Shown piece after piece: positions 49,036 through 52,650 of a stretch of DNA of 64,000 bases. The DNA is from Natrinema salaciae (lineage in GTDB: Archaea; Halobacteriota; Halobacteria; Halobacteriales; Natrialbaceae): assembly GCF_900110865.1 (NCBI RefSeq), contig NZ_FOFD01000001.1, forward strand, positions 496,001 through 560,000. The letters are read 5' to 3'. The notes beneath the pieces were generated by a model, which saw only the letters and a list, made by a program, of their open reading frames with translations, ran no database searches and was not told the DNA's origin. The position numbers were made by a program, and so were the translations under genes. How positions within the stretch are numbered: position 1 is the stretch's first letter; every line of letters starts with the position of its first letter.

Positions 49036-49110
49036 GGGTTGGTGATCTAGTCCGGTTATGATACCTCCTTCACACGGAGGAAGTCGGCAGTTCAAATCTG
49101 CCCCAACCCA
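49036..49110 (+). tRNA. tRNA-Val (anticodon CAC)
   Basis: The cloverleaf folds: acceptor GGGTTGG/CCAACCC with discriminator A at 49110, anticodon stem CCTCC/GGAGG with loop TTCACAC (anticodon CAC), T stem GGCAG/CTGCC with loop TTCAAAT. No CCA is encoded and no intron is present. It marks the left border of an AT-richer segment. Confidence 0.95.
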
Positions 49111-49441
49111 TCCGCTCGGTTCCCTCGCGTGAAGTAGTAAACCCCCAGAGGGCGGCGTATCCGTCTTGCACCCCTCCAGCAATTCACTGAGTCGCTTCCC
49201 AATTCTGTGTGAAATCGCAGTACGGCGTCCCGGTATCCAATAAGTAGTGCTGGGTACGCTAGAAGGCATGTTTATGAGCGAAAATATCCGCCTTCTTCTG
49301 GTACTTCTATGAATTAGCGATGTTCCTACGGTTGATGCTGTCTACCTCAAGAGATCAACTCGATATCTACAGCATTGAGGTGGATGAGAAACAGCCCGAA
49401 CTTCTTGTGAATCCGTTCGTTATTAGAAGAGGGATTGGAGA
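49111..49441. other. intergenic, 331 bp, start of the AT-richer segment
   Basis: Composition drops clearly from about 49230. I see no gene and no duplicate of the tRNA 3' end within the window, so an integration event is not demonstrated. Confidence 0.45.
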
Positions 49442-50602
49442 CTACCGATAACTTAGCTCGTCAACAGGCTTCTGAATTATATCAAACACTTCCCTCGCAC
49501 GGAAGACACGGTTTCTACTCTGACCGGTAATCTCCTCTAAGACTCCATCTTCTTCCAGCTGTTTCACTGCATTATTTGCTGTCCTATATGTCATACCAAG
49601 TGCATCTTCTGCTTCGTTAACAGTGAGATATGGTTTTGTGAATATCTCCGTCGAGAGCTGTGAAACAGAATTTGCCCCATCTTGATATCTGTCTCGGTAT
49701 TCATCTCGTAGGTCAAGCAACTCAGAAGCCCTACTAAATGCCTCTTTCGCCTGTTGAGAGATTCCTTTCAAGAAGAAAATCAACCATTCTTTCCACGCGC
49801 TATCTCGACTCACAGCCAGTAATCTGTCTGTGTATTCGTCCCGGTTGCGGTTAAAATAGGAACTTGGGTACAAGTATGGTTCTGGTAAGAGTTCGTCATT
49901 ACACATCATTAGCATGATGAGAAGTCGCCCCATTCTACCGTTACCGTCTCGGAAAGGATGAATCGTCTCAAACTGATAGTGAACTAATCCAATGTCAATC
50001 AGGGGCTGGTAGCTGCCTCCGGTTCGAATATATGTTTCCAAATTTTGCATCGCATAAGGAACTACAGAAGGTGGTGACGGTACGAATCGTGCTTCTCCCC
50101 CGCGACCTCCGATATACACCTGCGTATCTCGGAACTCCCCAGGTTTTTTATCTCCGCCGCGGACGCCACTCATCAACGTATTATGCAGGTTTCGAACGAG
50201 TTCAAGATCGATACCGTTTTCCAGTTCTTCGATTCCCTGAAAAACGGCTCTGACATAGTTATGAACCTCTCTCAGTTCATTACGGCTAGCTCCAGAGGAA
50301 CTATTTTCTCGTCCTGCTTCATATTCATACACGTCTGAAAGTGTGACTCGAGTCCCCTCTATTTCAGACGAAACAACCGCCTCTTTGTAGATGAACGGAC
50401 TGATTAGCATACTTGGATTTTCGACACGCCTTCCAACTCCACTAAGTTGACCTACATTGGTTGCTGCCTCTGTGAAGACATCCAATAATTCGTCCTCCAG
50501 ACGTATCTCTGGAGGAAGTGGGTCCGGCTTGAATGCGATATCACCTCCAGAATTCACTAATTCTCCGGATATTTCTCCGGATTGAAAACGGTCTACGTTC
50601 AT
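49442..50602 (-). CDS. Fic-domain protein with C-terminal winged helix
   Basis: A 386-residue Fic enzyme; Fic proteins transfer AMP or other groups to target hydroxyls. An N-terminal Fic_N region carries the inhibitory motif SSEIEGT (78-84, Ser/Thr-x3-Glu-Gly type). The catalytic motif HPFRDGNGRMGR begins at His215, and the flap residues around GEARFVPSPP are present, so it should be active when de-inhibited. The C-terminal ~60 residues (YLTVNEAEDALGMTYRTANN, VKQLEEDGVLEEI) form a winged helix, suggesting DNA binding. The start is ATG at 50602 (the frame's TTG at 50614 is rejected because a TATA box fits 50602). Codon use is AT-richer than neighbours, suggesting transfer. Confidence 0.93.
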   Translation of the reverse strand: MNVDRFQSGEISGELVNSGGDIAFKPDPLPPEIRLEDELLDVFTEAATNVGQLSGVGRRVENPSMLISPFIYKEAVVSSEIEGTRVTLSDVYEYEAGRENSSSGASRNELREVHNYVRAVFQGIEELENGIDLELVRNLHNTLMSGVRGGDKKPGEFRDTQVYIGGRGGEARFVPSPPSVVPYAMQNLETYIRTGGSYQPLIDIGLVHYQFETIHPFRDGNGRMGRLLIMLMMCNDELLPEPYLYPSSYFNRNRDEYTDRLLAVSRDSAWKEWLIFFLKGISQQAKEAFSRASELLDLRDEYRDRYQDGANSVSQLSTEIFTKPYLTVNEAEDALGMTYRTANNAVKQLEEDGVLEEITGQSRNRVFRAREVFDIIQKPVDELSYR

Positions 50603-50625
50603 GCATTCTATCAAAATGGGGGGCT

Positions 50626-50637
50626 CATATTAAACTG
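50626..50637 (-). promoter_or_regulatory. TATA box of the fic gene
   Basis: On the minus strand AGTTTAATATGA is centred about 28 bp before the ATG at 50602, giving a leaderless transcript. Confidence 0.5.
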
Positions 50638-50648
50638 TTTTGCGTATA

Positions 50649-50687
50649 GGTACAATATGGCCCCGAATATCTCCGCTATATTGTACC
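50649..50687. promoter_or_regulatory. 10-bp perfect inverted repeat upstream of the fic TATA box
   Basis: GGTACAATAT (50649-50658) and ATATTGTACC (50678-50687) face each other with a 19-bp spacer, 29 bp centre to centre, about three helical turns. The element lies just upstream of the TATA/BRE region, a typical regulator position. A third direct half-site, GGTACAATTA, starts at 50701. Confidence 0.6.
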
Positions 50688-50748
50688 GCTCCTTCGATCA
50701 GGTACAATTAGGAAGTGGTGCTGTGTGGTACCTAATAGAGAGAAGATA

Positions 50749-50975
50749 TGTTGAAGCGTATTCCGAGTGAGTACAATAAGCGGTACAATGACGAAGTGTG
50801 TTGAAGCGTATTCCGAGTGAGTACAATAAGCGGTACAATGAAGAAGTGTGTTGAAGCGTATTCCAAGTGAGTACAATAAGCGGTATAATGACGAAGTGTG
50901 TTGAAGCGTATTCCGAGTGAGTACAATAAGCGGTATAATGACGAAGTGTGTTGAAGCGCATTCCGAGTGAGTGTG
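50749..50975. repeat. 50-bp tandem repeat, about 4.5 copies
   Basis: Units start at 50749, 50799, 50849, 50899 and 50949 (the last partial, to about 50975). Each begins TGTTGAAGCGTATTCCGAGT and contains two TACAAT words 12 bp apart (GAGTACAATA and CGGTACAATG), the second mutated to TATAAT in units 3 and 4. Only one to three changes distinguish units. The 50-bp period is not a multiple of three, so the open frames across it are not real. Confidence 0.95.
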
Positions 50976-51010
50976 AACGTCTGATGGTTAGTCTGAAATC
51001 ATAGAAAATT

Positions 51011-51031
51011 CTTCAGAAGGTTTTACTGAAG
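51011..51031 (-). terminator. hairpin with following T-rich stretch after the AstE/AspA-like gene
   Basis: On the minus strand CTTCAG-TAAAACCTT-CTGAAG is followed by AATTTTCTATG, shortly after the stop codon at 51048. A rho-independent-like or T-rich terminator is plausible. Confidence 0.4.
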
Positions 51032-51047
51032 ATCTTTCATTCAGAAT

Positions 51048-51926
51048 CTACGAGGCATCGAACATCCCTTTCTCTCGGCAAACCTCGTAGACGGCCGACG
51101 TCGTCAGGGTCCGCTGGCGCTCGTCGTCGAGCCGACGGTACGTCTCGAAAATGATCGCCGGTGTGTCGAGGTCTGCACCGACCTTGTGCTTGAGCATGCG
51201 TTCGGTGCCGTCTTCACCAGCCGTCGCTCCCGTGAAATTGTATTCTGGGTTACTGATGAAGGTCTCGTTGAGATACGACTGAAGGTCGCGTCGGTACTGA
51301 TCGGCCTCGCCTGCGTTCGTCGCGAAGATACCCTGTCCGACTCCGTCCCCCTCATCCCACTTGTACAGACCACTGGAACTGTGGAGGTCCAACAGGAAAT
51401 CGATGTTCTCCTCGGTCACGACGTTCCAGATCCCTCGTGCGAGCGGTGACCACGGAGCTTGACCAGCGGGGAACTCCCGGTTCAAATCTTGTACGTTGCC
51501 TTTCCCGCTGCGGTCGAATCCCCGAGTACCGTTCCTGATAGCGGGTTTGCAGGCCTCCGGAAGCACGACCAGCCTGCCGCTCTCGATGCTCCACTGGGCG
51601 ATTCTCGCCGCCGAATCGTATCCGGCTGGTTCGTCGCCGTGCATCCCGCCGACGACCATGACCGTCGGTCCGACCGATTGCCCGTCGATGACGTGAACTG
51701 TCGTCTCTTCGGGCAAGCCTTCCTGGATCTTGTAACTCCATCGCGAGGGCGAGGCAGCCGCGGCGGAACCACCGGCAGCCGTCAGTGTTCCCAGACCCGT
51801 CACCACGGTGGCACCGGCCGTGCCGAGGCCCTTCATGTACGTTCGCCGGTTTAGTTGGTGGTTTCCACGATCCGTATCGTTCGACGCGAATGGTTGCCGC
51901 ACATCATTCATTCCAGAGGAGAGCAT
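51048..51926 (-). CDS. Tat-exported AstE/AspA-like (M14-type) zinc hydrolase
   Basis: A 292-residue exported protein. The Tat motif is NRRTYMKGLG (27-36) followed by a Gly/Ala/Thr-rich hydrophobic core ending near AAAASP. The mature part is a succinylglutamate desuccinylase/aspartoacylase-like fold: zinc ligands His96 and Glu99 (GGMHGDEPAG), His182 (LLDLHSSSG), and catalytic Glu261 (AIIFETYRR). Such enzymes cleave amides or C-terminal residues; here probably an extracellular carboxypeptidase or deacylase, substrate unknown. A TTAATTAAG box 26 bp upstream supports the ATG at 51926. Its 5' end is duplicated upstream, and a paralogue lies at 53505. Confidence 0.88.
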   Translation of the reverse strand: MLSSGMNDVRQPFASNDTDRGNHQLNRRTYMKGLGTAGATVVTGLGTLTAAGGSAAAASPSRWSYKIQEGLPEETTVHVIDGQSVGPTVMVVGGMHGDEPAGYDSAARIAQWSIESGRLVVLPEACKPAIRNGTRGFDRSGKGNVQDLNREFPAGQAPWSPLARGIWNVVTEENIDFLLDLHSSSGLYKWDEGDGVGQGIFATNAGEADQYRRDLQSYLNETFISNPEYNFTGATAGEDGTERMLKHKVGADLDTPAIIFETYRRLDDERQRTLTTSAVYEVCREKGMFDAS

Positions 51927-52063
51927 ATATAAATCCTATGAACATTCTCTTAATTAAGAATTTACACGATCCGTATCGTTCTGCGCAAATGGTTGCCACA
52001 CATCATTTATTCTAGAGGGAAGCAAATGTGAATGCGATGAATACTCCTCTAATTTGAGATTAT
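51866..52063. repeat. 99-bp tandem duplication of the 5' end and promoter of the AstE/AspA-like gene
   Basis: 51866-51964 and 51965-52063 are direct copies at roughly 75-80% identity: both contain CACGATCCGTATCGTTC, AATGGTTGCC, CACATCATT, and an A/T-rich promoter end. The outer copy, read in the gene's direction, encodes a matching INDVWQPFAQNDTDR then VNS and a stop, so it is a truncated 5' fragment. Confidence 0.85.
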
Positions 52064-52512
52064 CAAGAAGAGGTTGACGAGTGGAAGCGGAAGGGGCGGT
52101 CACTTTTGTCCCAGCTTTGGGACACGAACGGCAGAGACGGAAACGTCCCAGATAATGATAGAAACACCCTCTGAAATCGGTTTCTCCGTGGAATAGTGAT
52201 TCCCCGGAACGGCCACAACAGCCGGATCATTGACTACATACCAGCAGCGGCCCGGACGATGCACACCGGTTTGCTTGGAAAAATCAACCAGCAGTTCGTC
52301 TCTACACGAGGTTTTAAAGCATATAGAATTATCCCCAAAAAGGGAGTGAGTGACTCACGACCAATCGATACACGATGGTAGAACCGAATACGTCACGGCT
52401 GACTCGAGGGAGCCCCAGATCGCGCACCACGTTGCTGCTACGATCCTGCCCCCTCTTCGATCGAGTCCTCTCGCCGACGACGTTTAAGCCGATCGGCGTG
52501 GTAGAGTGCCGT
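51927..52512. other. intergenic, 586 bp, AT-richer
   Basis: Holds the outer copy of the duplication (to 52063), a small hairpin GTCCCA-GCTT-TGGGAC at about 52110-52125, and at the right edge CGTTTAAGCC (52481-52490), a TATA-like box 26 bp before the 45-residue protein. A 61-codon frame from a GTG at 52196 has no motif and I do not call it. Confidence 0.45.
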
Positions 52513-52650
52513 ATGTACCGACTCCAGTGTGACAGCTGCGATCTCGAGCGCGAACGGACGAACTGGGCCGACGCGAACAGGGAGGCCAGCGATCACGAAG
52601 CCAAATACGCCGACCACTGGGTGAGCATCGTCGACGTGCGGGAGGTCTGA
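52513..52650 (+). CDS. small zinc-binding-like protein (45 aa)
   Basis: MYRLQCDSCDLERERTNWAD begins the protein; Cys-x2-Cys is followed by two His (SDHEAKYADHWVSIV), as in the protein at 48180. CGTTTAAGCC is centred about 26 bp upstream, fitting leaderless translation. Function unknown. Confidence 0.7.
   Translation: MYRLQCDSCDLERERTNWADANREASDHEAKYADHWVSIVDVREV

What the first reader, a model, noticed from the sequence alone, without database searches (positions are those of the whole stretch)
50603..50990. Fic gene controlled by a TACAAT inverted repeat plus a 50-bp tandem array
Three things coincide upstream of a Fic gene: a leaderless-type TATA box, a perfect 10-bp inverted repeat (GGTACAATAT...ATATTGTACC) right behind it, and 4.5 nearly identical 50-bp units each carrying two more TACAAT words. 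The Fic protein ends in a winged helix. I infer that the protein (free or modified) binds this array as an autoregulator, giving a self-contained Fic switch. The array resembles iterons, so an origin or partition role is an alternative. I know of no described system with this layout.
Basis: partly seen in the sequence, partly recalled or inferred. Interest (0 to 1): 0.68.

Follow-up and report, generated by a model that had tools for sequence, protein, structure and literature searches.

The report
Fic defence gene with phased self-binding sites
The repeats next to this toxin-like Fic gene are very probably docking sites for the Fic protein itself, and the same roughly 50-base spacing recurs in front of related genes across salt-loving archaea, which suggests that this family of virus-defence proteins controls its own production.

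Summary
A perfect 10-bp inverted repeat (GGTACAATAT-N19-ATATTGTACC) and a 50-bp x 4.5 tandem array lie upstream of a class II Fic gene, and all nine GTACAAT words in the 64-kb window are there. The Fic protein is a relative of SoFic, a known anti-phage Fic, with a C-terminal winged helix. The autoregulator reading gains strong comparative support. The N19 repeat keeps its spacing and position in orthologues 84-85% identical in protein. The array's half-sites at about -177 and -227 are kept in orthologues that have no tandem array. In 56 thinned haloarchaeal SoFic promoters, half-sites differ between clades but match within a promoter (z 4-5; controls null) and track the recognition helix. In 53 promoters without arrays, direct repeats peak at 50-51 bp; seven of eight clades rank 50, 51 or 52 bp first of 119 spacings. 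Another clade carries its own 50-bp x 4.5 array of unrelated sequence. Precedent: Yersinia CccR, a Fic-HTH protein, represses itself through a spaced 10-bp inverted repeat. So the principle is known; the phased 50-bp, clade-specific operator layout appears new. An iteron or origin role has no support. DNA binding and the sign of regulation remain unmeasured.

The parts
49442..50602 (-). SoFic-type class II Fic gene (Fic_N + Fic + C-terminal winged helix), 386 aa
   Evidence: Pfam Fic_N 4.2e-23 and Fic 4.2e-21; PADLOC SoFic 6.7e-115; AF2 model closest to SoFic 3zec/3eqx
50354..50371 (-). N-terminal inhibitory motif SSEIEG (pattern [S/T]xxxE[G/N], class II Fic)
   Evidence: sequence; motif definition from family knowledge
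49934..49960 (-). catalytic Fic motif HPFRDGNGR, intact
   Evidence: sequence; mostly invariant columns in alignment A1
49472..49672 (-). C-terminal winged-helix domain (residues 311-377)
   Evidence: AF2 secondary structure H-E-H-H-E-E-H, pLDDT about 90
49550..49588 (-). predicted DNA-recognition helix (residues 339-351)
   Evidence: AF2; helix identity tracks operator similarity
50627..50636 (-). TATA box within AGTTTAATAT; also a degenerate half-site 51 bp from the forward arm of the inverted repeat
   Evidence: sequence; 7/10 match to GGTACAATAT
50649..50658 (+). inverted-repeat arm GGTACAATAT (-56 to -47 from the ATG)
   Evidence: arm and N19 spacing kept in G116 and G023, degenerate in G060 and G272
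50678..50687 (-). inverted-repeat arm (ATATTGTACC on +), -85 to -76
50701..50710 (+). further half-site GGTACAATTA, 52 bp from the first arm
   Evidence: GGTTCAATTA at the same place in G116
50749..50972 (+). tandem array, 50-bp unit x 4.5, two half-sites per full unit (starting at 50770/50782, 50820/50832, 50870/50882, 50920/50932)
   Evidence: the -177 and -227 sites are conserved in G116 and G023, and the -226 site in G060
49036..49110 (+). tRNA-Val(CAC) at the left edge of the low-GC insert that holds fic and the array (insert about 49111-52515)

Best explanation
The inverted repeat and the 50-bp array are the operator of the Fic gene, bound by the winged helix of the Fic protein that it controls. 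SoFic-type Fic proteins are dimers. Their recognition helices read short half-sites in alternating orientation, with the same-strand sites recurring every 50-52 bp. Several dimers can therefore line up side by side across the promoter, and in most clades they cover the TATA box and reach the start codon. The most likely result is negative feedback, which keeps a toxic AMP-transferase scarce until it is engaged, for example through a change in ATP binding or C-terminal-domain position during infection, which would free the promoter. In this genome the upstream part of that phased site set has been homogenised into a 4.5-copy tandem array with eight half-sites, probably giving tighter or more cooperative control. 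Shown by computation: site conservation, within-promoter matching, phasing, link to the recognition helix, protein family and fold. Inferred: physical binding, repression rather than activation, cooperativity, and release during infection.
For: (1) The inverted repeat keeps position and N19 spacing in orthologues from other families: G023 AGTACTATAT-N19-ATATTATACC (P=0.003 vs shuffles, the smallest value possible with 300) and G060 (degenerate, P=0.047), with perfect arms in G116. (2) Half-sites at -177/-227 in the window recur at -178/-228 in G023, -176/-226/-276 in G116 and -226 in G060, although G023 and G060 have no tandem array. (3) In 56 thinned haloarchaeal SoFic promoters, sites within a promoter match each other more than those of other promoters in the predicted orientation (z 5.3, 4.6, 3.8; P=0.0002), with five mis-oriented controls null. 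(4) Operator similarity follows recognition-helix identity after correcting for the Fic domain (partial r=0.088, P=0.0005); the converse is not significant (P=0.15). (5) Direct repeats peak at 50 bp (z 8.4) and 51 bp (z 7.8) in 53 array-free promoters, with the largest null z 3.3; against GC-matched haloarchaeal DNA P<=0.0002; 7 of 8 clades rank 50, 51 or 52 bp first of 119 lags. (6) A Fic gene of another clade (L119) has its own 50-bp x 4.5 array of unrelated sequence, and L095 a 51-bp x 2 array. (7) The operator is private: unique in its genome, and the second SoFic gene of the same genome carries a different half-site, AGTCAAAT. (8) CccR precedent: footprint, EMSA and ITC on AGATAATCAT-N26-ATGATAATCT (PMC9755527). 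(9) ATP binding twists the SoFic C-terminal domain (PMC12249575), a possible coupling.
Against: No binding data for an archaeal Fic were found. The helix-operator correlation is weak in size. Clade A (27 of 101 promoters) shows no 50-bp phasing. The window's array units carry two half-sites in the same orientation 12 bp apart, unlike the alternating layout elsewhere, and the array is not in register with the inverted repeat (69 and 81 bp from the half-site at 50701). The inverted repeat lies upstream of the TATA box here, so activation is not excluded. Promoters within a clade are related, so they are not fully independent samples.
Confidence: 0.78

Rival explanations
1. The Fic protein binds the same sites but as an activator or as a switch between states: sites upstream of the TATA box recruit the transcription machinery, and the array raises output.
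For: In the window the inverted repeat (-85 to -47) lies upstream of the TATA/BRE region, where haloarchaeal activators usually bind (general knowledge); the array extends further upstream.
Against: In clades B, C, F and H the sites cover the TATA box and abut or include the start codon, which fits occlusion; the window's TATA box itself reads as a degenerate half-site; CccR represses (PMC9755527).
Confidence: 0.14
2. A separate host transcription factor or nucleoid protein, not the Fic protein, binds the repeats.
For: No binding experiment excludes it; several factors can share a promoter.
Against: Half-sites differ between Fic clades, covary within promoters and follow the Fic recognition helix rather than the Fic domain; two Fic genes of one genome carry different half-sites; the inverted repeat is absent elsewhere in the genome.
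Confidence: 0.07
3. The array is an iteron-type replication origin or partition site of an integrated element.
For: Tandem 50-bp units resemble iterons; the region is a low-GC insert at a tRNA gene.
Against: None of the eight proteins scanned with Pfam (fic and its neighbours) is a replication protein; arrays with the same spacing but other sequences sit in front of other Fic genes; the sites continue into the promoter and occur phased without an array in orthologues.
Confidence: 0.02
4. The tandem array is a neutral local expansion; only the inverted repeat is functional.
For: Copy number varies (4.5 here, about 3 in G116, none in G023 and G060); second words drift to TATAAT or TTCACT.
Against: Half-sites at the array positions are kept without an array in G023 and G060, and 50-bp phasing is general in the family.
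Confidence: 0.2

Closest known systems
CccR of Yersinia pseudotuberculosis (Fic + C-terminal HTH, autorepressor; PMC9755527)
   Same: Class II Fic with a C-terminal HTH; spaced 10-bp inverted repeat at its own promoter
   Different: CccR: one pair with N26 spacer, bound and repressing by experiment, secreted toxin. Here: N19 pair plus a phased 50-bp array, archaeal, no binding data
SoFic/Sofic anti-phage system (PADLOC SoFic; Shewanella SO_4266 3eqx/3zec; E. coli Sofic PMC12249575)
   Same: Domain order, catalytic and inhibitory motifs, winged-helix C-terminal domain, fold (TM 0.8)
   Different: No promoter or DNA-binding function found reported for these; the NCBIfam SoFic equivalog cut-off is not reached here (166.9 vs 550 bits); no AS1-like co-directional small gene is evident downstream
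Autoregulated toxin-antitoxin operators with several inverted repeats (e.g. AbiEi, PMC7319586, abstract only read)
   Same: Negative autoregulation of a toxin through inverted repeats at its promoter
   Different: There a separate antitoxin binds DNA; here toxin and DNA-binding domain are one protein
Plasmid iterons
   Same: Tandem direct repeats of tens of base pairs
   Different: No replication gene among scanned neighbours; sites belong to the fic promoter and share spacing, not sequence, with other fic promoters

Membership tests
SoFic (class II Fic with C-terminal winged helix) | Fic_N and Fic domains | tested here: met
   Pfam 4.2e-23 and 4.2e-21; PADLOC SoFic 6.7e-115
SoFic (class II Fic with C-terminal winged helix) | Catalytic HPFx[D/E]GN[G/K]R motif and N-terminal [S/T]xxxE[G/N] inhibitory motif | tested here: met
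   HPFRDGNGR and SSEIEG read directly
SoFic (class II Fic with C-terminal winged helix) | C-terminal winged helix | tested here: met
   AF2 model; best PDB match SoFic 3zec, TM 0.80-0.83
SoFic (class II Fic with C-terminal winged helix) | NCBIfam SoFic equivalog cut-off | tested here: not met
   166.9 bits against 550: a relative of SoFic, not the same equivalog
SoFic (class II Fic with C-terminal winged helix) | Anti-phage activity by AMPylation | not testable with these tools
   only context: a fic gene 85% identical sits between HmaC/DUF499-like and HmaB/DUF1156-like genes
CccR-type autoregulated Fic-HTH | Inverted repeat of about 10 bp at its own promoter | tested here: met
   GGTACAATAT-N19-ATATTGTACC
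CccR-type autoregulated Fic-HTH | N26 spacing of the repeat | tested here: not met
   N19 here; inverted pairs peak at 20-28 bp start-to-start in haloarchaea, against 36 in CccR
CccR-type autoregulated Fic-HTH | Protein binds the repeat and represses its own gene | not testable with these tools
   needs EMSA, footprint and reporter
Iteron origin | Adjacent replication-initiator gene | tested here: inconclusive
   none among the eight proteins scanned (fic and its neighbours); the rest of the window was not scanned

The most novel reading that the evidence does not exclude
SoFic-type Fic proteins form a broad class of one-protein toxin-autoregulators that assemble as repeating dimers on DNA with a built-in step of 50-52 bp. 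Each lineage has its own private operator code that co-evolves with the recognition helix, so that the occupied array holds the defence enzyme silent until infection changes its conformation and opens the promoter.
Probability: 0.4. Interest if true: 0.8.

Novelty: new variant of a known kind. Interest (0 to 1): 0.62.

Why it matters
SoFic is reported in about 31% of the more complete archaeal genomes (PMC12988326), yet the CccR authors note that almost nothing is known of how class II Fic proteins are controlled (PMC9755527). The comparison here gives a direct, testable prediction for this family in haloarchaea: a private operator made of half-sites about 50 bp apart, readable from sequence. 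It offers a natural set of about 100 protein-operator pairs for working out the DNA code of one winged-helix family, and a concrete idea of how a toxic defence enzyme is kept silent.

Tried and rejected
Single-promoter inverted-repeat scores against shuffles were mostly not significant on their own and a self-repeat score was only moderately enriched; the pooled covariation and lag tests replaced them. Rfam found only the tRNA. The viral collection held neither the unit pattern nor a close Fic relative. The 87-aa ORF across the array (50698-50961, minus) is a mechanical reading of the repeats with no Pfam match. No attachment-site copy of the tRNA-Val 3' end was found on the right side in this window, so the insert's right border rests on relatives only. 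Bacterial relatives also show repeated half-sites near the start (Thermus, cyanobacteria, rhizobia), with a 51-bp lag in both cyanobacteria but other spacings in rhizobia; a dozen or so loci were too few for a test.

Full report
WHAT IS THERE. The window lies in a haloarchaeal chromosome (G000:C1:496001-560000); a genome of the same genus, G025, corresponds to Natrinema thermotolerans by its contig. A Fic gene runs on the minus strand from 50602 to 49442. Its protein has Fic_N and Fic domains, scores 6.7e-115 against the PADLOC SoFic model, keeps HPFRDGNGR and the class II inhibitory motif SSEIEG, and is predicted to end in a winged helix with its recognition helix at residues 339-351. The closest solved structure is Shewanella SoFic (TM 0.80-0.83). 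It stays below the NCBIfam SoFic equivalog cut-off, so it is a relative of SoFic rather than the same equivalog.

THE OBSERVATION. The inverted repeat GGTACAATAT-N19-ATATTGTACC (50649-50687) and the 50-bp x 4.5 array (50749-50972) are real. A further half-site lies between them at 50701. All nine GTACAAT words of the window fall in this stretch, against 1.45 expected, and the repeat is unique in the genome. In two of the four full units the second word reads TATAAT.

THE INSERT. From 49150 to 51050 the GC content is 43-48% against about 65% outside. In several genomes of the genus the DNA after the same tRNA-Val continues, after 0.27-0.9 kb, with sequence matching the window from about 52,500 on. 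So fic, its array and the next gene probably entered at a tRNA gene. In G116 and G272 the relics lie near a tRNA-Ala.

ORTHOLOGUES. Fic genes 84-85% identical in protein exist in G060 and G023 (the latter Halobacterium sp. TGN-42-S1), and one of 80% in G025, whose upstream DNA is cut off by the contig end. A matrix built from the window's sites finds the N19 pair at the same place in G023 (P=0.003, the floor with 300 shuffles) and a degraded one in G060 (P=0.047), and single half-sites at -178 and -228 in G023 and -226 in G060, where the window has -177 and -227. G023 and G060 have no tandem array. So the 50-bp step of the sites is older than the tandem array seen here. G116 keeps the repeat and about three array units next to a truncated fic; G272 keeps a decaying repeat and has no fic match. 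These look like remnants and do not refute the Fic link.

THE FAMILY. About half of 391 genomes sampled from the class carry a relative. Upstream regions of 101 genes fall into eight clades, most with a half-site of their own: GGATAAC/GTTATC (B), AGTTAG or CTAAGTC (C), GTTTACT (E), GGTTAGC (F), AGTCAAAT (H), TACAAT (Q, this window). Three tests were run on promoters thinned for similarity. First, sites of one promoter match each other, in the predicted orientation, better than those of other promoters: z 5.3 for the first pair, 4.6 and 3.8 for the start-proximal site, while five mis-oriented controls are null. Second, operator similarity follows recognition-helix identity after correction for the Fic domain (partial Mantel r=0.088, P=0.0005), not the reverse (P=0.15). 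Third, with tandem-array promoters left out, direct repeats peak at 50 and 51 bp (z 8.4 and 7.8 against shuffles, largest null 3.3; 63 other upstream regions give -0.7 and 1.6; GC-matched haloarchaeal DNA gives P<=0.0002), and seven of eight clades rank 50, 51 or 52 bp first of 119 spacings. The value of 50 bp came from the window's array, which was excluded from the test. A Fic gene of clade E (L119) carries its own 50-bp x 4.5 array and L095 (clade C) a 51-bp x 2 array, both of unrelated sequence.

HOW IT MOST LIKELY WORKS. CccR of Yersinia, a Fic protein with a C-terminal HTH, represses its own gene by binding AGATAATCAT-N26-ATGATAATCT, shown by footprint, EMSA and ITC (PMC9755527). E. coli Sofic is a dimer, and comparison with ATP-bound SoFic shows its C-terminal domain twisting with ATP (PMC12249575). 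The haloarchaeal sites alternate in orientation and recur on the same strand every 50-52 bp, as expected if dimers bind side by side. In clades B, C, F and H they cover the TATA box and reach the start codon, which points to repression. In the window the TATA box itself reads as a degenerate half-site 51 bp from the forward arm. I therefore favour negative autoregulation by a multi-site Fic-DNA assembly, with the tandem array as an enlarged version. Binding, sign and release during infection are inferred.

LIMITS. No report of an archaeal Fic binding DNA was found. The array is not in register with the inverted repeat, and its doubled same-strand words are unusual. Clade A lacks the phasing. 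Sampling within clades is phylogenetically structured. The paper library searched holds only open-licence papers, so earlier reports may have been missed.

VERDICT.

Noticed in passing
window 51862-52041: A 99-bp unit occurs 1.8 times in tandem across the start of the M99/AstE-like gene, duplicating its upstream end.
   Followed up: no
window 49036-49111 and relatives G144, G028, G400, G092, G004: Partial copies of the tRNA-Val 3' end lie near this tRNA in several relatives: a used integration site.
   Followed up: partly
L075 (G000:C4:192000-197500): A second SoFic-type gene (39% identical) in the same genome with its own half-site AGTCAAAT, one copy of which runs into the start codon.
   Followed up: partly
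L073; L169 and L170: The Halobacterium orthologue lies between HmaC/DUF499-like and HmaB/DUF1156-like genes; two Thermus plasmid relatives also sit next to a DUF1156 gene: a recurring defence neighbourhood.
   Followed up: partly
L119 at -268..-44 and L095 at -122..-19 from the fic start: Separate 50-bp x 4.5 and 51-bp x 2 tandem arrays before Fic genes of other clades.
   Followed up: yes
L178 (Agrobacterium vitis pTi plasmid): Several copies of ATCGACATG in both orientations just upstream of a fic gene, the last including its start codon.
   Followed up: no
L039 719-1144: A PIN-domain (VapC-like, by eye) gene lies near the fic-less remnant of the inverted repeat in G272.
   Followed up: no
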